Positions 15,964 to 53,210 of a DNA stretch of 64,000 bases are shown piece by piece (the first letter of the stretch is position 1; each line of letters starts with the position of its first letter). Origin of the DNA: Sulfobacillus thermosulfidooxidans DSM 9293 (GTDB lineage Bacteria > Bacillota > Sulfobacillia > Sulfobacillales > Sulfobacillaceae). The translations under genes and the position numbers were made by a program. The stretch is from positions 124,001 to 188,000 of the forward strand of contig NZ_FWWY01000001.1 in NCBI RefSeq assembly GCF_900176145.1, read 5' to 3'. The notes beneath the pieces are model-generated. The model saw nothing but the letters and a program-made list of their open reading frames with translations. It ran no database searches and was not told the origin of the DNA.

Positions 15964-16040
15964 GTGATAATGCGAGAGCCTACGGATCGTCCGAGAAAGA
16001 CTCGTCCCAGGTGGCGCAATGGGATGTGCCAGGGACCGTC
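15930..16040. other. Probable attachment junction (att) of the integrated element
   Basis: Large serine integrases insert next to their own gene at a short core. Here the host-like prepilin frame ends and the integrase 3' end lies within 100 bp. The exact core cannot be set without the right junction. Confidence 0.45.
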
Positions 16041-17578
16041 TACTCGGATGGACGTTGGGCTGCCCCCACGGCCACTGGGCAGACTTCCTCTCCCGCGCTG
16101 CGCCACGTCACCGTAATGTGTCGGCCGGGATGACAGACAATGCGTTCGACCACCGACTGAATCCACGGCCGGGCGGTGGTGACGTCAGCGGTTAATGCCG
16201 CTTCCAATTGCGGAATCAGGGCCGCGACCCGCGCCGCCAGCCGTTGCGGATCGTCCAGTTGCGGCCAAGGCGCATGTAATACGGCTTCGCACTCGGCTTG
16301 TTCTGCGAGCAAGCGGGCTTTCGCCTGCTTATATTCGTCAATCGTATACGCTCCGGCGAGGGCCATCTCCTCGGCACGCGCCAGCATAGCTGGGATCGCC
16401 GCCAGCCGTTGCGCCGCCCGGTGCCGCGCGGCTTGGGCTTGAGCCATCACGGGATCATCCCCTAACCATCGGGCTACCTGCTCGGGCGTCGGAGCGGTTT
16501 GGACTTGCCGGAACTCCTCACGCAAAGCCCCCAAGACGGCGGCATCCAGATCGGCGACCGGGATTTTGGTCGCGGTGGAGCATTGTCCTTTCGTGTGATA
16601 GGCCCGACAACAATAGACCGGGGCCCGGCGACCGTCGGGTTGCCGCCGCCCGGTCCGCACCACCACCATCGAGGCGCCGCACGCCCCACACCGCACCAAC
16701 CCGGAGAACAAATACGGCGAATCATGGGTGCGTCGCCCCAGGCTCTGCCGAATTCGGAGACGATCTTGTGCCCGATTCCACGTCTCCCGATCAATAATCG
16801 CCGGGTGCGTGTCCCGAATGATTTGCGGCGTCTGGCGCCGGACATGCGTGTGCCCCTCCCGATCCGTCTCCTGAATCCATCGTCCATAGATGGTATCCCC
16901 CACATAGGCTTCCCGCCGCAAGAGGCGTTCCACGGTTCGGACATCCCACGTCCCTGTGCGCCCGCGTTGACCGGGAATTCCGGCCGCATTGAGGCGTTGC
17001 GCAATGGCCCGAAACCCCAATTGGTCCTGAAGATACCACTGAAAGATCTGTTGCACTACGGGCGCTTCCTGGGGATCGGGCACCCAGGAATCCCCATGCG
17101 GTCGATAGCCAAACGGCCGTTCTCCATGCCGTTTACCTTGTTTGGCGCGTTCGGCTTGGCCGCCCTTGACTTTGCGGGATAGCTGCCGTCGAAAGTAATG
17201 GGCAAACATTGCCAGCATCATCATTTTGAGTTCACCATCCGGCGTTGTGAGGTCGAGATCGTCTGACACACTGGCAAACCGACAGCCGACGCGCTGCAAT
17301 TCTTCCAAAAACAACATGGTCGATACCATGTCGCGGGTCAACCGATCCAATTCATTGACGACAATGCACTGGATCTGATCCCGTTGCACCCGCGCCAAAA
17401 TCTCGCGCAATTCCCGGCGATTCGATCCGCCGGATTGCACATATTCGACAATATCCACGAGGTCCCAGTGGCGGTCGTGGCAATAAGCCCGAATCCGCGT
17501 GCGCTGGGCGGCAAAACTATAATGGGCATCCGTGGCTTGTTCTTTCGTCGAGACCCGGACGACACCTAAGACTCGCAT
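16040..17578 (-). CDS. Large serine recombinase (integrase)
   Basis: 512 residues. The N-terminal resolvase domain has the nucleophile Ser in VVRVSTKEQ (residue 10) and the later NELDRLTRD motif near 76. The recombinase domain (about 150-260) includes GERPFGYR. A zinc ribbon follows with CGACG near 305 and a second Cys pair about 30 residues later. The C-terminal part (about 370-450) carries charged helices, probably the coiled-coil motif of large integrases. It should catalyse integration and excision of the element. The start has AGGAG eight bases upstream and overlaps the previous gene by 13 nt. Confidence 0.93.
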   Translation of the reverse strand: MRVLGVVRVSTKEQATDAHYSFAAQRTRIRAYCHDRHWDLVDIVEYVQSGGSNRRELREILARVQRDQIQCIVVNELDRLTRDMVSTMLFLEELQRVGCRFASVSDDLDLTTPDGELKMMMLAMFAHYFRRQLSRKVKGGQAERAKQGKRHGERPFGYRPHGDSWVPDPQEAPVVQQIFQWYLQDQLGFRAIAQRLNAAGIPGQRGRTGTWDVRTVERLLRREAYVGDTIYGRWIQETDREGHTHVRRQTPQIIRDTHPAIIDRETWNRAQDRLRIRQSLGRRTHDSPYLFSGLVRCGACGASMVVVRTGRRQPDGRRAPVYCCRAYHTKGQCSTATKIPVADLDAAVLGALREEFRQVQTAPTPEQVARWLGDDPVMAQAQAARHRAAQRLAAIPAMLARAEEMALAGAYTIDEYKQAKARLLAEQAECEAVLHAPWPQLDDPQRLAARVAALIPQLEAALTADVTTARPWIQSVVERIVCHPGRHITVTWRSAGEEVCPVAVGAAQRPSE

Positions 17579-17968: not shown

Positions 17969-19990
17969 TCAGGTGTTTTGTTGATTCTTCCAGGCCTCGA
18001 TAATATAGGTCCAAAGCGATTCTTGCGAAACAATGGGAGCTTGGATGCGAATGGGTTCAGTGGCATCAGCGGGTAGAAATAACGCATCACCTTTCCCCAA
18101 TAGGGTTTCCGCGCCCGGGCGATCCAAAATGACCTGAGAATCTGATGTGGAAGATGTCAGCAGGGCAATGCGAGTGGGCAAATTGGCTTTTAAGGGCGAA
18201 CTAATGATATTGGCTAACGGATGTTGGGTGGCAATCCACAGATAAAACCCGGCTCCTCGGGCTTTTTGCCCTAATCGGCCAATGTTCCGTTCAAACTCTT
18301 TCAGCGTCTCCTTGTCCAGATGGTCCTTGAGATCTTTGTATTCATCGATCACTAACAGACGATAGGGCAAGGATAAGATGCCTCGCTGCCGTGCAGTAAT
18401 TAAATCAGGGACTTTTAATTTGGCAAATTGTTTGTACCGGGTTTCTTGTTCATCGGCCCATTGTGCGACAAGGGCGACAACATCTTCCGGGTCAAGCAAC
18501 ACGGCATCAACATGCGGCATGTGATAAATCCAGGGAAAGGATGATCCCGCTTTGGGATCCACGACCGTAATCCGCAAATCCGACGGAGACATCGTAATCG
18601 TGATACTGGTGAGCATGGAGGAAATAACCGTCGTTTTGCCGCTATTCGTAGACCCTCCAATCAGGCAATGGGGCCATGTGGTAATATCCGACCACACAAC
18701 ACGGCCATTCGGAGTCACGCCCAAACAAATGGGAACCGCCATGCGTTGAATTTTCTGCCGATCATCGGGATCCGTTCGTGCCAACGCCGTCACCAGATCC
18801 ACAAATTGGCGATCCGGACGGGGACGTTCCACGGCAATGACCCCGGGTTCGCCATCCACATAGGTCATGCGCAAAGGCAGATTCCCATGCCCCAATTGCC
18901 CCGCGAGCGTGGCGGATTCCGCCAAAATGCGTTTGGCTAACGCCGCCGGGGGGCGAATCTTGGCGACATCGACCGTGAGACCCCGTTGCCCGCCGATGGC
19001 CTCCACATCAGGGAACCCTAAGTGCGCTAACACCTGCACGACTTCCTGCACCCGGTCCGCGGGAAGCGGCGTCGTCAACAAGGGCAGGGGATTCGGCGCG
19101 GCAGACCGAAGATCCTGCCACGTCAATCCCTGCGCACCCCATCGCGTGGTATCCGATAACCCATCCTGCGTCGTCCGGGAGGCCGGAGAGGGTAAGTCGC
19201 CAGAGACGACCTGTTGGGACGGTCCGTGTTGGGGATCCCGTCCCCGGTGCACCACGCCTTCATCCGAGACCGTCCACGATCCGGGGACTCCCGCGTGATG
19301 CAAAGCGATTTCCGCCCATTGCGTTGCCCATTGCATCCAGGCTTGCATCATCTCCGCATCAAAACCATGGGACCACGCCGGATGGACGCCGCCGCCGTCC
19401 GCGACAATCTGAATCCGGCGCACAGGGCCCCCGTCCGGCCCGGTCATCCAGATGGCGTCGCCCAAACTCCGAGCCAATCCCGCATCCAACACGTGGGCCA
19501 CCGTTTGCCACGTCGGATCGATGCCCGTGGAATTTCCCCCGGCCGTCCATGTCCGATGATACCGGTGAAAGGCTTCCGTCACCCATGATGGCTGATGAGT
19601 CAGCGTACCCAGCACAATCATTGGCCATCGCCAGAGCATCCAGTCCCGCCAGGTCTGGCCGTTGCGAACCGACGCCGGCGTGTGATAGAGCCATGCCAGT
19701 GTCCCGATGAGCACCCACAGGCCGCCGAGTCCCAAGCCCACGCCCCATCCGATGGCTCCCCACGCGATAGGAACATGATGTGAGGGCAACATGACTCCTC
19801 TCAGAGAAGAATGCCGTCCCGGAATCCGTCCCAATGTCCCGGGTGGCCGAGGGACGGAAAACGGTAACGGAGACCACAGGGCGTGCCAGGCCGCCGCGCC
19901 ATTCCACGGCACCGCCGGAACCCAATGATGGATGGCCGCCACATGCCACCCCAACCCGATCATCACCAACAAAATGAGCCACGCCCACAC
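17969..19990 (-). CDS. FtsK/SpoIIIE-type DNA translocase (TcpA-like coupling ATPase)
   Basis: 673 residues. Two or three N-terminal membrane segments (first about 3-20, next near 75-105) precede a cytoplasmic ATPase. Walker A is GGSTNSGKTT near 445, with VVDPKAGSSF soon after, Walker B as LLVIDEYKDL near 550, and the FtsK-type ATQHP motif near 590. Such proteins bring DNA to the transfer channel in Gram-positive conjugative elements, or pump double-stranded DNA themselves in actinomycete elements. GTG at 19990 is preferred: AAGGAGG lies ten bases upstream, while the TTG at 20023 has none. Confidence 0.9.
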   Translation of the reverse strand: MWAWLILLVMIGLGWHVAAIHHWVPAVPWNGAAAWHALWSPLPFSVPRPPGTLGRIPGRHSSLRGVMLPSHHVPIAWGAIGWGVGLGLGGLWVLIGTLAWLYHTPASVRNGQTWRDWMLWRWPMIVLGTLTHQPSWVTEAFHRYHRTWTAGGNSTGIDPTWQTVAHVLDAGLARSLGDAIWMTGPDGGPVRRIQIVADGGGVHPAWSHGFDAEMMQAWMQWATQWAEIALHHAGVPGSWTVSDEGVVHRGRDPQHGPSQQVVSGDLPSPASRTTQDGLSDTTRWGAQGLTWQDLRSAAPNPLPLLTTPLPADRVQEVVQVLAHLGFPDVEAIGGQRGLTVDVAKIRPPAALAKRILAESATLAGQLGHGNLPLRMTYVDGEPGVIAVERPRPDRQFVDLVTALARTDPDDRQKIQRMAVPICLGVTPNGRVVWSDITTWPHCLIGGSTNSGKTTVISSMLTSITITMSPSDLRITVVDPKAGSSFPWIYHMPHVDAVLLDPEDVVALVAQWADEQETRYKQFAKLKVPDLITARQRGILSLPYRLLVIDEYKDLKDHLDKETLKEFERNIGRLGQKARGAGFYLWIATQHPLANIISSPLKANLPTRIALLTSSTSDSQVILDRPGAETLLGKGDALFLPADATEPIRIQAPIVSQESLWTYIIEAWKNQQNT

Positions 19991-20182
19991 GATGGCAACG
20001 CCTCCTTGTTCATCGGGGCTCAACCCGAGCGTCCGCTGACCCTTGGGGATCTATCCTGGGCTGCTAGTCAAAGGCATCCCCGGAACCACCCAGGGCAGAC
20101 GGCACCCTCCGCAAAAGCAAGCGAGATGCCCCTGCATCAGGCATCTCGGCAATTTAACTCGGTTAACCTCGTTACAATGCAG

Positions 20183-29853: not shown

Positions 29854-31746
29854 TTATGAGGTGCGCCGGGCGCGGGTCCGATACCAGGCTTCTTCTTCAG
29901 GCGGGACAATCGCCCGCACTTGGGTCCAGGCATCGTGAAAGCCGTCACGCATGCGCAATAACACCTGTTGCGGGGGCAAGGCTTGTAATGCCGTGGCCAC
30001 CCGTTGGGGCATGTGCAAGGCGTCCGCCGTCGCGCGAACATCTTGTTGCGATTCCAAGCGGAGAAAGGCTTTGATGGGGGCGGCATTCCACATGCCTTGC
30101 CCCGCGGGCGTATCCCATAAGGCTTGGGGTTGATTCGTCGCCAAGGCGAGCACACCATTCCATTTGCGAATCGTCGTCGCTAAATCGACAAGCGCGGGGC
30201 CTAACACCGATTGCGCCAACAAGCGTTGCCCTTCATCCGCCAACACGACGGTCCACTGGTTCTGCATTTTGCGCACCCGCAACCACGCCCACGTGGTTTG
30301 CATGACGAGCCAATACCGCGCCGCCGTCGCGGCCGGTAATTTAGTCGTCCCCCACGCGCCCTGGGTCGCAATATTGCCCAAATGCCACACCACCAGGGAT
30401 CCGGGCATCGTCGGCCAATTTCCCGTCGCGTGGGCCAAGACGTGTTGATCCGCCCCCCGCCAATACGTCCACAGGCGGGCTCGTGCATCTTGTGCTGCGG
30501 CGTCCGGCATCGTCTCTAGGGCCGCCCAGACATCCGCCATTGTCGGCGGATCCGAATCCCGCTCCCAACTGAGAGGATCTTCGAGCGTGACGCCACGTGT
30601 GGCCCACGCTTGCAGAATCGCCTGTTGCACGGCGGCATCCGTCACCGCATCCCACGATCCTAACAAACGCAAAACCGTGCTGGCCGTCCGCAACATCGTC
30701 GGCATCCGCATAGCGTCGGTCGGGCCGTGGCCCGTCCGGGCGGGCAACGCAAACGGATTGGGCACCGTCCCCGCTTGTTGATCTGAAATGTCGATCCACG
30801 TTCCTCCCACGGCGTCACACAAAGCGCGATATTCCCCGTCCACGTCGAGAATGACCACGCCCCAGTCTTGGGCCAACCAGCCCTGGGTCAAGGTTTTCAA
30901 CCAAAAACTTTTGCCGTTGCCGGTGGCGCCCACGACCAATAAATTGGCCGCCAGTCCGTTGACGTCCTGAAAAAAATCGACAAAGACGGGCTGATTTTGC
31001 GGCGTATGCCCTACGTAGACGCCACGTGCGGGATCATCCGTCACATGCCCCCATCCCGGCCACACGATTTGCCCCACGCGATCCGTGGGCACCACGCGAG
31101 GATTCCACCAGATGTCCTGGGATCCCATCAGCCACCGCCACCATCCCGGGCGATCCGCAGATCCTCGACTAGTCAGGCCCGTCCACATGCGCTGGAGCAT
31201 TCGGGCCTGTTCCCACGTCAGAGGCACCGCATGAATGCCCAAGGATTCCCATCGCGCCTGCAACAGAGCGACATCCGCGTCCAGCGCGTCCGGCGTACTG
31301 GTCACGACCACGAAGGCATCGAGGGTGACCAGCGTATCCGCGGCAAACACGATGCGGTCCCGCAATTGCCGCAAGCCTTGGAGCGTCACCCATTCATCCC
31401 GACGGGGACCTAATTCGCCTTGATCCCGATCCCGGACAGCCCATTCCAGCCGACGAATTTTGCGTTCCAGATCGCCATTGAGCACTAAGCCCCCGGGATC
31501 GAGTCGCCAAAACCACGTGACCAACGGCCACGCATCGGGACGCAAGGGACTCAAGAGCGGCGCCACGTGGTCCCCCGTCAAGCGGGGCGGCCATTGATCA
31601 ATGCCCCACGCTTGATGCGCGACCGTCAGCGACCCGCCCGCAAATTGCACGGTCTCGGGCGTCTCAAACCACAATCCCCCCATCTGCGCGGTTTCGGATC
31701 GCGGCTCTGTCATGGAGCGTCGCGCCCGTGCGGACCACCAAGCCAT
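29854..31746 (-). CDS. VirB4-type conjugation ATPase
   Basis: 630 residues. Energises assembly of a type IV secretion channel. VVGATGNGKSFWLKTL near residue 270 is Walker A, and ILDVDGEYRALC follows as in VirB4/TraU ATPases. VVLADEGQRLL near 535 is Walker B, followed by an ATNQPQAL motif. ATG 31746 follows AAAGGAGG by nine bases; the longer upstream frame is rejected. Sits directly after the PrgI-like gene, the usual order in Gram-positive elements. Confidence 0.92.
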   Translation of the reverse strand: MAWWSARARRSMTEPRSETAQMGGLWFETPETVQFAGGSLTVAHQAWGIDQWPPRLTGDHVAPLLSPLRPDAWPLVTWFWRLDPGGLVLNGDLERKIRRLEWAVRDRDQGELGPRRDEWVTLQGLRQLRDRIVFAADTLVTLDAFVVVTSTPDALDADVALLQARWESLGIHAVPLTWEQARMLQRMWTGLTSRGSADRPGWWRWLMGSQDIWWNPRVVPTDRVGQIVWPGWGHVTDDPARGVYVGHTPQNQPVFVDFFQDVNGLAANLLVVGATGNGKSFWLKTLTQGWLAQDWGVVILDVDGEYRALCDAVGGTWIDISDQQAGTVPNPFALPARTGHGPTDAMRMPTMLRTASTVLRLLGSWDAVTDAAVQQAILQAWATRGVTLEDPLSWERDSDPPTMADVWAALETMPDAAAQDARARLWTYWRGADQHVLAHATGNWPTMPGSLVVWHLGNIATQGAWGTTKLPAATAARYWLVMQTTWAWLRVRKMQNQWTVVLADEGQRLLAQSVLGPALVDLATTIRKWNGVLALATNQPQALWDTPAGQGMWNAAPIKAFLRLESQQDVRATADALHMPQRVATALQALPPQQVLLRMRDGFHDAWTQVRAIVPPEEEAWYRTRARRTS

Positions 31747-31772
31747 TGGATGATGCCTCCTTTCTCCTCGCC

Positions 31773-32624
31773 TTAGCGGATCGACGGTCCTTGCCGTCGA
31801 ATCACGACGGGCCCTTGAACCCGTTCCAAGGCGACCGCCTGCCATTGTGCATAATCCGCCCCGGGATGGCCCAGCCCCTGCAACATCCGTTCGGCGGCGG
31901 ATGCACTGAGCCAGTGCCACGTGCCCGGTCCCGCTAAACTCTGCCACGTTTGTTCGGCCGCGAGCAAGTGTGGCACCGCCTCATCCCGGTGCGTTCCCGG
32001 CACGCTGAGCCGCACCCACACGCCCGAGGCAATACTTTTGGCCGCGACGCGCTCAATCCACCATTGCCATCGGCGCCGCAACACCGGCGGGAGGTGCGGA
32101 GGCGGTACGTCCCGCATCCCCGGGCCTTGCACGCTCCCAATCTCCACCGTACATCGATGCCACGCCGCTGTCCGCACCACTGTCGCCAATCGCCGATGCC
32201 AAGCGTCCAGATCCTCCGGATCGAGAAAGGCCACGGGTGGGATGGTGAGCCAGGCCATCGCCCACACGCGATCTCCCATGACCCAAAAGGGGTCCTCCCG
32301 TTGATAGGCTGGCACCGACCAGCCGCCACCTGGCCACGTAGCCCATTGCCGAGGACGCCGCCGAAATTGCCGACGGATAGCCCACTGATGGGGGCCGTCG
32401 ATAGCCCCCCACGCCATTAGTCCCCCCGTGCCGATCAGCCCCATCATCAGCGCGGGGGTCGTCCAGCCGATTGCACTCCCTACGAGTAGCGCGATCACCA
32501 ACGCGACACTTCCGATACCCAAAAACGTGATGAACTGTCCCCACGTCAGATGCCCAATGAGATGGGCATCCACTCGCGGGTCGAGATCCGGAATGTCCAG
32601 CGGCGTTAACGGATCGTCGGCCAT
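31773..32624 (-). CDS. PrgI-like (VirB3-type) membrane protein
   Basis: 283 residues. Two close membrane helices (about 30-50 and 55-75) follow an N-terminal segment with DIPDLDPRVDAHL and GHLTWGQF, the hallmark of PrgI/VirB3 proteins. A longer soluble C-terminal domain (about 100-283) is added, as in SCO6880-type proteins. Acts with VirB4 at the inner face of the channel. Confidence 0.75.
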   Translation of the reverse strand: MADDPLTPLDIPDLDPRVDAHLIGHLTWGQFITFLGIGSVALVIALLVGSAIGWTTPALMMGLIGTGGLMAWGAIDGPHQWAIRRQFRRRPRQWATWPGGGWSVPAYQREDPFWVMGDRVWAMAWLTIPPVAFLDPEDLDAWHRRLATVVRTAAWHRCTVEIGSVQGPGMRDVPPPHLPPVLRRRWQWWIERVAAKSIASGVWVRLSVPGTHRDEAVPHLLAAEQTWQSLAGPGTWHWLSASAAERMLQGLGHPGADYAQWQAVALERVQGPVVIRRQGPSIR

Positions 32625-47967: not shown

Positions 47968-48933
47968 TTAGGCTCCTTCCGCCTGGATCGCCGCGTAATA
48001 CCCGAGCACGTTGGCCCACTGCGGATCGGCTGCCACCGTCAAGGGCATCCCTGCCACGACCACGTCCCGGAGAGCCGTGGCTCCGCCTCCGATCACCCAA
48101 CACCGGCGCATTCGGGGCAAAACCGCCGACCACGCGGCGTCGAGATAATCCCGCATCGTGGCTTGCCACGCCCGTAACGCCCGCGCTTGATACCGGGCCA
48201 AGTCTACGTCTCGGCCTCGAATCACGATCTGGGTTTGGTGATCCACATCTTCGGGCCACAACGCCACGCCCGTTTCGGCCCGAACTTGCGCGGCCACGTG
48301 CAGGGCCAAGTTCCGCGTGCCAATGTCCCACGTGCCTGCCGGATCCGCCGTGACCCGCAATCCCTGCCGACTCCATTCGACGACCACATATTCCGTCGTC
48401 CCGTACCCAACATCCACAATGCCATACAGTCCTGGCTCCGATGCGGGCGTCATGAGACTCAGCGCCGCCGCCATGCCTTGGGGATAGACGACCACGCGGG
48501 AGATCGTCAACGGGATGCCGTTCACCGATCCCGTGCCGTGGAGCTGCTGTTGCAGTGCCTGTCGCTCCGCCTGATACCACCCGAGCGGCACGCCCACCGC
48601 TAACGTCCAGGGCTCCGCATCCCCGCGCAGGCCGTCGGCCGCCACGGTAGACGCTAAGGCCAGGAGCGTCAGATCCCGCGTGCCCGTGCTCATCCCTTTC
48701 TCGTGACCCAATACTGTCCGGGCTTGACGCGGGGCATCCGTCCCCCACCAGTAGGCTTGGCTATCCGATCCCCACGTCACGATCACCGGGCGGGCACTCG
48801 CCACCGCGATCATGTCCTGCCCGGCATTCTCGCCCACCGCGGGCACAATCCAACTGGGCCCTTTCCATCGTCCGCCCCGCGGACCTAATCCTTTACAAAA
48901 TCCATGTCCGACATCGATGGCCACAATGCCCAC
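47968..48933 (-). CDS. ParM/StbA-like actin-type segregation protein
   Basis: 321 residues. AIDVGHGFCKGLG at the start is phosphate-1 of the actin fold, GIVDVGYGTTEYVVVEW near 172 is phosphate-2, and WVIGGGATAL near 284 is the adenosine motif. The 320-residue size fits plasmid ParM/Alp proteins. Together with the next gene it would move copies of an excised, plasmid-like form of the element. GTG start. Confidence 0.85.
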   Translation of the reverse strand: MGIVAIDVGHGFCKGLGPRGGRWKGPSWIVPAVGENAGQDMIAVASARPVIVTWGSDSQAYWWGTDAPRQARTVLGHEKGMSTGTRDLTLLALASTVAADGLRGDAEPWTLAVGVPLGWYQAERQALQQQLHGTGSVNGIPLTISRVVVYPQGMAAALSLMTPASEPGLYGIVDVGYGTTEYVVVEWSRQGLRVTADPAGTWDIGTRNLALHVAAQVRAETGVALWPEDVDHQTQIVIRGRDVDLARYQARALRAWQATMRDYLDAAWSAVLPRMRRCWVIGGGATALRDVVVAGMPLTVAADPQWANVLGYYAAIQAEGA

Positions 48934-48949: not shown

Positions 48950-48967
48950 CATAACCCTCCAGGGTTA
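48950..48967. repeat. Short palindrome before the parM-like gene
   Basis: AACCCTCCAGGGTT lies just upstream of parM. It could be part of a centromere or operator; only one copy is visible. Confidence 0.3.
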
Positions 48968-49207
48968 GTTCACGACCCACGCGTGAATTTGGAGACGCTT
49001 CCCGGTGTCCGTTCGACCGTCCATCGTCCAGAGTGTCCGTCCGCCCGAGAGGGGAACGGGCACGAGATCCGCCACGACGCCATAGCGCGCGGCCAAGGCC
49101 CGGCATACCGCTACGGCATCCTCCACGGGATCAGATCCGGTGTCTTGTACGACGGCGGATTCCGCCGTATTCCCATCATCCAGCCGATAAATGCGCCATA
49201 ACACCAT
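48965..49207 (-). CDS. Hypothetical protein, 80 aa
   Basis: Not recognised. Acidic, small. GGAGGG seven bases before ATG. Lies at the right border of the IscB element. Confidence 0.55.
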   Translation of the reverse strand: MVLWRIYRLDDGNTAESAVVQDTGSDPVEDAVAVCRALAARYGVVADLVPVPLSGGRTLWTMDGRTDTGKRLQIHAWVVN

Positions 49208-49230
49208 GAGTCATCCCTCCATCATAGGTT

Positions 49231-49272
49231 GGCGGCTTCCTCTCCGTCCTGCAGGACGGAGAGGAAGCCGCC
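49231..49272. repeat. Perfect 42-bp palindrome at the right end of the IscB element
   Basis: GGCGGCTTCCTCTCCGTCCT, two bases, and its exact complement. It lies 10 bp beyond the iscB stop codon. IS200/IS605-related elements have such subterminal hairpins, recognised by a TnpA transposase. It may also stop transcription. Confidence 0.85.
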
Positions 49273-49282
49273 TGACTGCTTG

Positions 49283-50563
49283 CTAACTGGCAAGTTTTTG
49301 CGTGATCTGCCAGCCGTTGCCCCGTTGCAAAATCCGGCAGACGGTATGGAAAATTTCTGCGCGGTTTCCGTCGACCGTTGTCACCACAAAGGATCCTCGG
49401 GCTCGGACGGTCACACGCCCCACCCAGGTTCCGGCGAATTTCCCTGTTTTCCTCTCGGCGCGCACCCAATCTCCGGTCTGAAAGCCGAAGTGAACCTTTT
49501 GTCGTGACCGATGTCGAATCGGGAAGCCGTACGCATTGGCTCCACACAGTTGTCGGGTACCGCGTCCCTTGGCGGTCCAAATCTGCACATACGCCGGAAG
49601 GCTCGTGAACCGATCCGGGGTGCTGGCACCCACACAGAGCGCATCGTAATAATGCGCTTTGGGCAAGCCCTGATGGAGTCGCTGCTTCTTGGTCCGTCCG
49701 CCCGATCCCCCTTCCACCGGCAATCCCGTGGCTTGGAGTTGCTCATAGAGCCGCCACCGGGTGGCGTTCATCATCGCTGCATCCCGCAATGGCTTTCGGG
49801 CTTGCATCTGGATGTCGGGGAATCCGAACTCGTCGGCTGTCCGACTCCCCTTAGTCTGGTTGCAGGCGTGGCACGCCAAGGCTAAGTTGCTAACCCGATC
49901 CGTCCCCCCGCGGCTCTTCGGCACGATGTGCTCCACCTCCAGTGGCACATCGGTGGCCCCGCAGTAGACACAGGCCCGCCCCCACTTCTCCAGCAGGTAC
50001 TCCCGCACTTCATAGCCCAACAGGGTTCCTTGCTGATACGCCACCCCCGAGATTTCCGGGTTGTCGAGCTTCTGCGTGTCGAAGCGCACATGTTCTACGC
50101 TGAGATCCGTGACGGGGGCGCCCTGCCGGATCTTCGCCATGGCATGGAGCGTCTGATCCACCCGGGCTTCCAGAGATGGTGGTAGCCAGCCCTCTTTCCG
50201 CTTGCGGTTCTGAAACCGTGCCTGGCGATAACGGGTCTTGCGATACCGTCGCCCTCTACGGAGAGCGCGTCGGGCATCCAGCTTGGCTTTGATACCTGCT
50301 TTGTGGACAATCTCCCCAAAGAAAACGACCTTGGATCCTTTGGCCCCCTTCAGAACGATGGCCATGCCGGTCGTTTTGCTACCGGGATCGAACTTCACCC
50401 GCAGCGGCTGCAACACAGATTCTGCCGCCGTCCGATCCTTTAGGCGAATCGTAAATGGCGCTATTTTATGAACCATGGCCCGACCCCGTTCCAGCAACTG
50501 ACGCGCACGCTTTTCGGTGCAGGGCATCAGCGGATTCTTCTGTCGGTCTAGGACAAAAACCAT
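49283..50563 (-). CDS. iscB: IscB RNA-guided nuclease (RuvC + HNH)
   Basis: 426 residues. PLMP domain (NPLMPC, residues 10-15); RuvC-I with Asp59 in [10 protein letters not shown]; Arg-rich bridge helix 97-123; RuvC-II with Glu157 in SVEHVRF. The HNH domain has CVYCG (198-202), [10 protein letters not shown] (His212) and CHACN (231-235). RuvC-III is HYYDALCVG with Asp307, and a C-terminal domain of about 110 residues binds RNA or the target motif. All catalytic residues are present, so it is probably active. ATG 50563 follows GGAGG; a longer upstream frame runs through the RNA region. Confidence 0.93.
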
Positions 50564-50823
50564 GAGACGGCCTCCGTATTGTTCCCGTAAGGGACTCGTA
50601 ACGCTTCCTTGCGGAAGTCTCTCCTCGCCAAAGTTATTCAGGCTTTTTACACTAAAGGCACCGCTTGCCCTACCCCCAGCTCGCTGTTTAACCTTTAGCG
50701 ACAGAGCCCGGAACTGGAGAAGCATTCCGGGGTGTCATGACCCCAATAACGTAGTGCCGAATGCACTGAGGCTGGTCAACCCGGGAGCTTTCGACACGCT
50801 CCGACCTTCAGGCCGGGGTGGTT
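50564..50823 (-). ncRNA. Putative omega-RNA of IscB with guide at its far end
   Basis: About 260 nt without a supported gene, rich in short stems (for example CCGGCC...GGTCGG and AGTGCATTCGGCACT), between the interrupted gene and iscB. In studied IscB loci the omega-RNA lies exactly here and its guide is the host sequence just outside the left end. The guide would therefore come from minus-strand bases about 50824-50845. Boundaries are inferred. Confidence 0.65.
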
Positions 50824-50978
50824 AACACGGTATCATAGTCCCCGTCTCCCACCGTGACGATGACCGCACTGACGGATCCGATCAGATCCGGTCGATGAAT
50901 GGCTCCAAGAATCTCCTCGACTTCCCAAAAGTCGGTTATCAATTGCCCCTCAATGGTGTGTGCCGGACGCACGTCCAT
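50808..50978 (-). pseudogene. Small gene (56 aa) entered by the IscB element at its 3' end
   Basis: ATG 50978 after GAAGGGG. The protein starts MDVRPAHTIEGQLITDFWEV and ends VLTTPA, where the last codons already lie in or at the insertion. Joining across the element, the frame would continue into TYDGGM. Probably a truncated small gene rather than a native end. Confidence 0.5.
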
Positions 50979-51584: not shown

Positions 51585-51854
51585 TCACACCTGATCGGAC
51601 GGGATCAACAGCCCGGGATAGGGCGTCGTCGCTCCCCGCTCCGCGAGTTCTTGTCGCGCCCGTTGGACCCGGCGGCGCAAATCCTCGCGGGCTTCCGCCA
51701 AGGTCGCGAAATGGCGCCCCGCCGTATACGTATCGGTGACGCCCTCGTACCAATATGTGCCATAGGGCAACGCCGCACCCTCCTCGATGCCCAACGCAAA
51801 CAGCCAAATATGCTGTTGGGCATTGGGCACGGGAATGATGTCCAGAATGGTCAT
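51585..51854 (-). CDS. Small hypothetical protein, 89 aa, downstream of isrB
   Basis: ATG 51854 overlaps the isrB stop (ATGA). Contains YGTYWYEGVTDTYTAGRHF then a basic helix. The normal ribosome binding site seems to have been displaced by the insertion of the IsrB element; GGGGAGGAG lies about 20 bases away in the hairpin. Confidence 0.5.
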   Translation of the reverse strand: MTILDIIPVPNAQQHIWLFALGIEEGAALPYGTYWYEGVTDTYTAGRHFATLAEAREDLRRRVQRARQELAERGATTPYPGLLIPSDQV

Positions 51855-52942
51855 CGGACACTCGCGGTGCTCCTCCCCACGGCTGAAGCCGGGGGAAGGA
51901 GTGCCGCACCCCTCCTTTCCCATGTGAACCCGCCGGAACGGGCGAGCAGGCGAACCTGCCGGATACCGAACTGGCCGATGCGCCGGCCAGCTGGCCCAGC
52001 GACCCCCACCTTGCGAGTGACGGTCGTCGGTAGCCCGCAGACCCAGCCGCGCAGCCTGCCACGACGTGTTGTCACCTCCACCCAGTCACCCTTGCGAAAG
52101 AACGTCCCATTAGCCGTCCCGCCGTAAGGTAGCCGTGCCCTGCCCTTCTGCGGATTCTGCCGGTGGAGCGAGCGCCGGTGGTGACGAAGCGCCGTGAACA
52201 CATAGAACGACCGGTTGCCGAAGGCGCACCGCGTTATCCCCATGAGCATCGCCACAGCATCGACCGCCTGAGTCTCGAAGACCTCTGGCCGGTTCGGACC
52301 CTGGATCTTTGTAAGCCTGAACTGCTGTCTCCACGTCGCCGTGTCGGTAGATTCCACAACCGTCACCGGCGCCAGCTTCTGCAGTTCCCGAAGCGTGACG
52401 GTCTTGCCGATCTCGGTGGTGGAGAAGAAGTGCGCCTGCTTGCCGATCTTCGGATCGTGACGTACGTTCTCGACGATGATTTGCTGGATTGGATAGATCC
52501 TGCACAGTTCCCGAACCGCCTTAAGCCTGGCTTGCACCTTTGAGAGTTGGCTTGGCGCAAGCCAGTAGCTTCTGCCGTGGCGACGGTTGTCGAAGCGCTT
52601 GGGACGGCGCGGTGTCTTGCGGTATCGCCTCGCCCGCCGCAGGTTGCGGCGCGTCTCCATTTTCTTGTGTGTCTGGTCCGGCAGGTTCACCTGCGCCGTG
52701 ACTTCGATCTGCTTGTGCGAAGCGACGGCTACCCCTTCGTGTTTTGAGCCGGGATCGAGCGCGAGAACCATCGGCTGCGTCGCCGTTCCCAGGGGAATGA
52801 GCATCTGGATGTAGAAGAATCCGAGCTTGTTGCGTCGCGCTCTGGCGACTCCATCGCGGAGCATGATCCGTGCATGCGCCGGCGTCGTCGGCATGAGCGG
52901 TGTGCCGTCCCGCGCAACTACGGGAACTCTCGGTTGCTGCAT
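51851..52942 (-). CDS. isrB: IsrB-type OMEGA protein (RuvC, no HNH)
   Basis: 363 residues. PLMP at 15-18; RuvC-I with Asp63 in LDPGSKHEG; Arg-rich bridge helix (ETRRNLRRARRYRKTPRRP, 96-114); RuvC-II with Glu158 in IVENVRHD; RuvC-III with Asp228 in TQAVDAVAM. Only about 65 residues separate RuvC-II and RuvC-III and no Cys or His pairs occur there, so the HNH domain is absent. This is the IsrB layout, expected to nick DNA. ATG 52942 follows AAGGAG at nine bases. Confidence 0.88.
   Translation of the reverse strand: MQQPRVPVVARDGTPLMPTTPAHARIMLRDGVARARRNKLGFFYIQMLIPLGTATQPMVLALDPGSKHEGVAVASHKQIEVTAQVNLPDQTHKKMETRRNLRRARRYRKTPRRPKRFDNRRHGRSYWLAPSQLSKVQARLKAVRELCRIYPIQQIIVENVRHDPKIGKQAHFFSTTEIGKTVTLRELQKLAPVTVVESTDTATWRQQFRLTKIQGPNRPEVFETQAVDAVAMLMGITRCAFGNRSFYVFTALRHHRRSLHRQNPQKGRARLPYGGTANGTFFRKGDWVEVTTRRGRLRGWVCGLPTTVTRKVGVAGPAGRRIGQFGIRQVRLLARSGGFTWERRGAALLPPASAVGRSTASVR
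51864..51907. repeat. Hairpin at the right end of the IsrB element
   Basis: GCGGTGCTCCTCCCC and GGGGGAAGGAGTGCCGC form an imperfect stem with GGCTGAAGCC in the loop. The same GGCTGAAGCC motif is found at the other end (near 53190), as expected for element ends. Confidence 0.65.
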
Positions 52943-53210
52943 GGGTGGATACTCCTTTCGCGGGCCTTGCGGCCCGGTGATTGTCGCCTCGACGATGCCC
53001 AGGGAGCATAGGCTCTGAAAAGCCGTGGCATTCAGTGGTTCTGCCGAAGATAGCCCGAACTGGCGAAACATTCGGTAGTTCTTGGTAGCTCCCTGGAGCC
53101 GCTGCTCAGGACATGTCTGGGCCGTCTAGTGCATAGCCCTGGCGGAGATCGCCGCCAGAGTCACTGGCCGCCACCAGCAAGCCCCAGGCTTCAGCCATGG
53201 GGTCTATGAC
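52943..53210 (-). ncRNA. Putative omega-RNA of IsrB
   Basis: About 270 nt before isrB, with several stems. On the minus strand GGCGGCGATCTCCGCC and the pair GGCTCCAGGGAGCT and TGCTCCCTGGGCA are clear. IsrB omega-RNAs are about 300 nt and occupy this place, with the guide just outside the left end (about 53205-53225). Inferred from gene order. Confidence 0.6.

What the first reader, a model, noticed from the sequence alone, without database searches (positions are those of the whole stretch)
49231..50978. Intact IscB locus whose guide would come from the small gene it interrupted
All RuvC and HNH residues are present, the element has a perfect terminal palindrome, and a structured 260-nt stretch lies where the omega-RNA belongs. 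The reading frame of a 56-residue gene runs straight into the left end, so the predicted guide (minus strand, about 50824-50845) is a piece of that gene. That fits the idea that the nuclease cuts the empty site and helps the element persist.
Basis: partly seen in the sequence, partly recalled or inferred. Interest (0 to 1): 0.68.

Follow-up and report, generated by a model that had tools for sequence, protein, structure and literature searches.

The report
Intact IscB element inside a gene
A small jumping element carrying an intact RNA-guided DNA cutter (IscB, a relative of Cas9's ancestor) and its guide RNA has landed inside a small gene of a Sulfobacillus-like bacterium's conjugative island, so its guide reads that gene; this is a well-preserved example of a known kind of element.

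Summary
The 426-aa ORF is a true IscB with all catalytic residues, and a full-length HEARO/omega-RNA (147 bits; gathering score 83) lies directly upstream. Aligned copies from relatives, and two sets of empty orthologous sites, fix the element at 49223-50826: no target duplication, inserted just 5' of an RTGRA motif (here ATGGA). A same-genus genome has the uninterrupted gene in synteny, reading GT|GTGGA, a good TAM, at the equivalent position.

Corrections: the "perfect terminal palindrome" is not the terminus, and it is abnormal: 15 related copies have a bulged hairpin (uninterrupted stem 3-9 bp), this copy 21 bp. The gene is not simply split: about 150 nt of its 3' part plus spacer, present in the relative, are missing. 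No TnpA lies in the element. No second copy of the guide target exists in the genome.

The retention idea fits published work on TnpB and IscB elements; cleavage was not tested. New member of a known kind, with two local oddities.

The parts
49223..50826 (-). IscB (ISC/HEARO-type, IS200/IS605-like) element, 1604 bp, no TnpA
   Evidence: end comparison of 16 copies and two sets of empty sites
49283..50563 (-). iscB, 426 aa, PLMP + RuvC I-III + bridge helix + HNH, intact
   Evidence: NF040563 435.6 bits, PF14239, PF01844; alignment to solved IscBs; dN/dS about 0.07-0.14 against relatives
50613..50826 (-). omega-RNA scaffold (HEARO RNA), full length
   Evidence: RF02033 147.2 bits, model 1-211/211
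50827..50842 (-). predicted guide (about 16 nt; GGGACTATGATACCGT), coding sequence of the small gene
   Evidence: adjacent to the mapped left end; guide length from known IscBs is an inference (PMC13180657)
49218..49222 (-). ATGGA: insertion-site motif and predicted TAM in the right flank
   Evidence: RTGRA at this position in nearly all of 16 copies; GTGGA at the matching position of the uninterrupted G003 gene
49231..49272 (.). 42-bp perfect palindrome in the position of the family's right-end hairpin
   Evidence: 21-bp uninterrupted stem against 3-9 bp in 15 related copies
50827..50978 (-). 5' two-thirds of the interrupted small gene (codons 1-50 plus 2 bases of codon 51)
   Evidence: ortholog L088:1498-1737 in G003, 52% identity; weak PHROG 21991 match of the ortholog
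48965..49207 (-). 80-aa gene downstream of the element, syntenic with the 94-aa gene in G003
   Evidence: BLASTP E=2e-8
47968..48933 (-). ParM-like segregation gene, syntenic in G003
   Evidence: 51% identity to the G003 protein; PHROG partition protein

Best explanation
A TnpA-less IscB (ISC/HEARO, IS200/IS605-like) transposable element inserted without target duplication immediately 5' of an ATGGA motif, inside a small gene next to a ParM-type segregation gene of an integrated conjugative element. A transcript entering the left end would carry about 16 nt of that gene as guide, followed by the omega-RNA scaffold, and load IscB. IscB would then cut DNA that has the guide sequence followed by an RTGRA TAM: the same gene without the element, for instance a sister chromosome after excision or an incoming island lacking the insertion. 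Repair from the occupied copy would restore the element. The element itself is spared because the guide is followed there by GTTAA, not RTGRA. Shown: intact protein, full-length omega-RNA, both ends, target motif, guide origin, intact ortholog in a relative. Inferred: transcription, guide processing, cleavage and retention.
For: IscB family and residues; omega-RNA. Ends: copies in relatives begin at GTCAAC or GTCATAG after unrelated flanks and are followed by R-T-G-R-A (16/16 T, 15/16 G, 15/16 A; purine at positions 1 and 4 in all). The G001 copy in front of tyrA has relatives in which the two flanks meet with RTGR at exactly that point (10 of 12 aligned loci); a GTCAAC-type copy in G016 has an empty counterpart reading |ATGAA in G013. 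The uninterrupted small gene in G003 reads GGCGGT|GTGGATGACC at the insertion point. dN/dS against four relatives is 0.07-0.14. Retention by TnpB after excision, with the TAM identical to the TnpA site, is described in PMC11870625.
Against: No expression or cleavage data. No empty allele with a matching guide target was found: no other exact match in the own genome, the two closest sites have 2 mismatches and no RTGRA, none in viral contigs, and G003 matches only about 11 of 17 guide positions. No transposase of this element was identified, and the right-end hairpin is atypical, so excision may no longer happen in this copy.
Confidence: 0.86

Rival explanations
1. Immobilised but nuclease-competent copy: the right-end hairpin has been turned into a perfect palindrome and the transposase-side cleavage motif altered (TTGAC to TTAAC on the opposite strand), so the element can no longer be excised by TnpA. 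IscB then acts only against element-free copies of the island arriving from outside.
For: 21-bp perfect stem against 3-9 bp in 15 relatives; GTTAAC instead of the GTCAA- start seen in the other strictly matched copies of this end type; no Y1 transposase in the element, and none of the ten fetched Y1 loci of the genome carries matching ends.
Against: TnpA recognition rules for this clade are unknown; a perfect hairpin might still be cut; both ends are present and the ORF is under purifying selection family-wide.
Confidence: 0.4
2. Dead passenger: the locus is a recent but unexpressed insertion; the guide-gene relation is just the automatic outcome of where it landed and has no consequence.
For: No matching target anywhere else in the genome; no expression evidence; the interrupted gene has also lost its 3' part.
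Against: Every part needed for function is intact in a family with many decayed copies; omega-RNA scores 147 bits and the first-stem change C-to-T keeps pairing as G-U.
Confidence: 0.25
3. The insertion did not interrupt an intact gene: the small gene had already lost its 3' end and the element landed in the remnant.
For: About 150 nt (27 codons plus spacer) present in G003 between the insertion point and the next gene are absent from the window, although insertions of this family are clean in the tyrA case.
Against: The right flank begins with a correct ATGGA directly at the end; a later deletion starting just beyond it would look the same. G003 is only 52% identical, so its gene may differ in length.
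Confidence: 0.45

Closest known systems
IscB/omega-RNA (OMEGA) elements: KraIscB-1, OgeuIscB, OrufIscB; HEARO RNA RF02033
   Same: PLMP, RuvC and HNH architecture, omega-RNA 5' of iscB, guide from the left flank, TAM 3' of the target, frequent lack of TnpA (PMC9755519)
   Different: distant from the solved IscBs (best PDB hit E=1e-48); inferred TAM RTGRA against NWRGNA or NTAAA reported for OgeuIscB/NovaIscB (PMC13180657)
TnpB of IS200/IS605 elements (ISDra2 and relatives)
   Same: RNA-guided nuclease that reads its guide from the flank and recognises a motif that is also the insertion site; proposed retention function (PMC11870625)
   Different: TnpB has no HNH, its RNA lies at the right end and its TAM is 5' of the target (established knowledge)
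IsrB (neighbouring ORF 51851-53071)
   Same: PLMP/RuvC protein with a HEARO-like RNA upstream, in the same island
   Different: lacks HNH; its RNA scores 43.7 bits, below the gathering score
Cas9
   Same: HNH inserted in RuvC, guide 5' of the scaffold, motif 3' of the target
   Different: here no CRISPR array, no REC lobe, one fixed flank-derived guide

Membership tests
IscB (OMEGA nuclease) | PLMP N-terminus, split RuvC with D/E/H-D, arginine-rich bridge helix, HNH | tested here: met
IscB (OMEGA nuclease) | HEARO/omega-RNA directly 5' of the gene on the same strand | tested here: met
   RF02033 50613-50826 (-), 147.2 bits
IscB (OMEGA nuclease) | guide taken from the flank at the left end, TAM in the right flank | tested here: met
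   geometry only: ends mapped by comparison and empty sites; RTGRA in the right flank
IscB (OMEGA nuclease) | RNA-guided, TAM-dependent DNA cleavage | not testable with these tools
   needs purified protein and RNA or an in-cell assay
IS200/IS605-like transposon | no target-site duplication, insertion next to a fixed short motif, subterminal hairpin | tested here: met
   the hairpin of this copy is an atypical perfect palindrome
IS200/IS605-like transposon | encodes Y1 transposase TnpA | tested here: not met
   none inside 49223-50826; Y1 genes elsewhere in the genome do not carry matching ends in the fetched loci. TnpA-less IscB loci are common (PMC9755519)

The most novel reading that the evidence does not exclude
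The element has lost mobility (perfect-palindrome end, altered cleavage motif, no transposase) but keeps an active IscB whose fixed guide targets the segregation region of conjugative islands of the same family, so it now works as an anti-competitor or island-homing nuclease rather than as a transposon-retention factor.
Probability: 0.1. Interest if true: 0.6.

Novelty: new member of a known kind. Interest (0 to 1): 0.33.

Why it matters
It is a clean natural test case: a complete IscB/omega-RNA unit with mapped ends, an inferred RTGRA TAM, a known guide, and an uninterrupted ortholog of the target gene in a sister genome, inside a conjugative island. It adds a well-supported insertion motif for a Sulfobacillus-family clade of IscB. 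It also raises a concrete question: does RNA-guided retention remain active after the transposon ends have decayed?

Tried and rejected
Taking the palindrome as the terminus was rejected by end alignment and empty sites. Taking the 56-aa ORF as the natural gene was rejected: its last 6 codons are element sequence and the ortholog is 79 aa. A guide-matched second target in the own genome or in viral contigs was not found. More orthologs of the small gene were not found beyond G003: 154 genomes of the class gave only weak partial hits, plasmids none, viral contigs none, genome contigs none; three contigs found with a degenerate GDYDTVW pattern are unrelated. A local TnpA element with the same ends was not found. 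Two key papers (Altae-Tran 2021, Meers 2023) are not in the library, so statements about them are from memory. Structure prediction was not run because sequence homology is decisive.

Full report
What is there. The minus-strand ORF 49283-50563 encodes a 426-aa protein that matches the NCBI model for RNA-guided endonuclease IscB with 435.6 bits (cut-off 175) and the Pfam RRXRR and HNH families. Aligned with solved IscB proteins it has the PLMP start, the RuvC residues D59, E157, H304 and D307, the arginine-rich bridge, and the HNH residues H212 and N226. Against four relatives at 74-78% identity the nonsynonymous/synonymous ratio is 0.07-0.14 (synonymous sites are close to saturation, so these are rough). 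Directly upstream, 50613-50826 on the same strand, lies a complete HEARO (omega-RNA) match of 147.2 bits with all 211 model positions. One first-stem base differs from the other copies (GTTAAC for GTCAAC) but still pairs as G-U.

Where the ends are. Copies of the element are abundant in related genomes (43 of 61 genomes have a match); named relatives are Sulfobacillus and unclassified Bacillota. DNA similarity to these copies begins at 50826/50827. GTCAAC-type and GTCATAG-type copies start at that base after unrelated flanks. On the right, similarity runs about 8 bases past the hairpin and is then followed by R-T-G-R-A (16 copies: T 16/16, G 15/16, A 15/16, purines at positions 1 and 4 in all; beyond position 5 no clear preference). 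That the motif belongs to the target and not to the element is shown by empty sites. A copy in G001 lies between an upstream coding region and tyrA, and in 10 of 12 aligned orthologous loci the two flanks meet exactly there, with GTGA or ATGA following. A second copy, with the same end type as the window, lies at the start codon of a gene in G016, and G013 has the joined site reading |ATGAA (the left flank there is less conserved). So the window element is 49223-50826, 1604 bp, with ATGGA (49222-49218) as the adjoining motif and, by analogy with known IscBs, the TAM.

The guide and the interrupted gene. The base before the scaffold is 50827, so the guide reads GGGACTATGATACCGT (50842-50827) for a 16-nt guide. 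This is coding sequence: the ORF from 50978 is 52% identical to a 79-aa protein in G003, a genome of the same genus. In both genomes the small gene is followed by a small gene of the same family (E=2e-8) and a ParM-like protein (51% identity). In G003 the gene is uninterrupted, and at the aligned insertion point it reads GGCGGT|GTGGATGACC, again RTGRA; the joined window site reads ACCGT|ATGGA. Both keep Val-Trp codons. A chance RTGRA at a given position has probability about 1/256 with equal base frequencies.

What does not fit a simple interruption. In G003 about 170 nt separate this point from the aligned start of the next gene; in the window only 15 nt remain. The last 27 or so codons of the small gene and the spacer are missing. 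Insertion in the tyrA case is clean, so there was a separate deletion before or after, or the gene was shorter in this lineage. The evidence cannot tell which. A perfect excision would therefore not restore the ancestral gene, although it would recreate the guide-TAM site.

The palindrome. The 42-bp perfect palindrome (49231-49272) occupies the place of the family's right-end hairpin, but the 15 other copies compared have a hairpin with an internal loop and at most 9 uninterrupted pairs, against 21 here. The right arm looks as if rewritten from the left arm, as known for quasi-palindrome correction (inference). Together with the altered end base and the absence of a transposase in the element or of matching ends at the fetched Y1 genes of the genome, this copy may be immobile.

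Setting. The window carries a serine recombinase at 16040-17578, FtsK/SpoIIIE at 17969-20023, a TraG/HerA-like ATPase at 29854-31947, a T2SSE-type ATPase, and ParA- and ParM-like genes: most likely an integrated conjugative element next to glucose-6-phosphate dehydrogenase (inference from gene content). About 1 kb upstream lies a second OMEGA unit, an IsrB-like ORF (51851-53071) with its own HEARO-like RNA (52977-53210, 43.7 bits), inserted at an ATGAC that appears to be the start codon of a downstream ORF.

How it likely works. As in published TnpB and IscB systems, the omega-RNA would carry the flank as guide, and the nuclease would cut the empty site, with the element copied back by repair (PMC11870625 for TnpB; IscB guide and TAM features from PMC9755519 and PMC13180657). 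The occupied site is spared because the guide is followed by GTTAA. No guide-matched target with an RTGRA exists elsewhere in the genome, and none was found in viral contigs. Expression and cleavage were not tested.

Verdict. It is a good new member of a known kind.

Noticed in passing
window 51855-53210 (-): Second OMEGA element: IsrB-like ORF (no HNH) with a HEARO-like RNA at 52977-53210; its right flank is ATGAC, which looks like the start codon of the ORF beginning MTILDIIPVP, and the IsrB stop codon TGA is supplied by that target motif.
   Followed up: partly
window 49231-49272: Perfect 42-bp palindrome where 15 related copies have a bulged hairpin; possibly a quasi-palindrome correction event.
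   Followed up: partly
right flanks in L089-L099: Related IscB elements often sit immediately in front of start codons (for example GTGAAA of tyrA in L096), because the insertion motif RTGRA overlaps common start-codon contexts.
   Followed up: partly
L003 (G000:C1:218519-218759): A HEARO RNA over the cut-off (128 bits) in the own genome is followed by only a 22-residue iscB start: an element with RNA but apparently no full nuclease ORF, which may be mobilised or used in trans.
   Followed up: no
window about 16000-62000: Probable integrated conjugative element with serine recombinase, FtsK, TraG/HerA-like and T2SSE-type ATPases and ParA/ParM-like genes beside the glucose-6-phosphate dehydrogenase gene.
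   Followed up: partly
L017, L018, L020, L021 (own genome): Several near-identical IS200/IS605-type tnpA copies indicating recent transposition.
   Followed up: no
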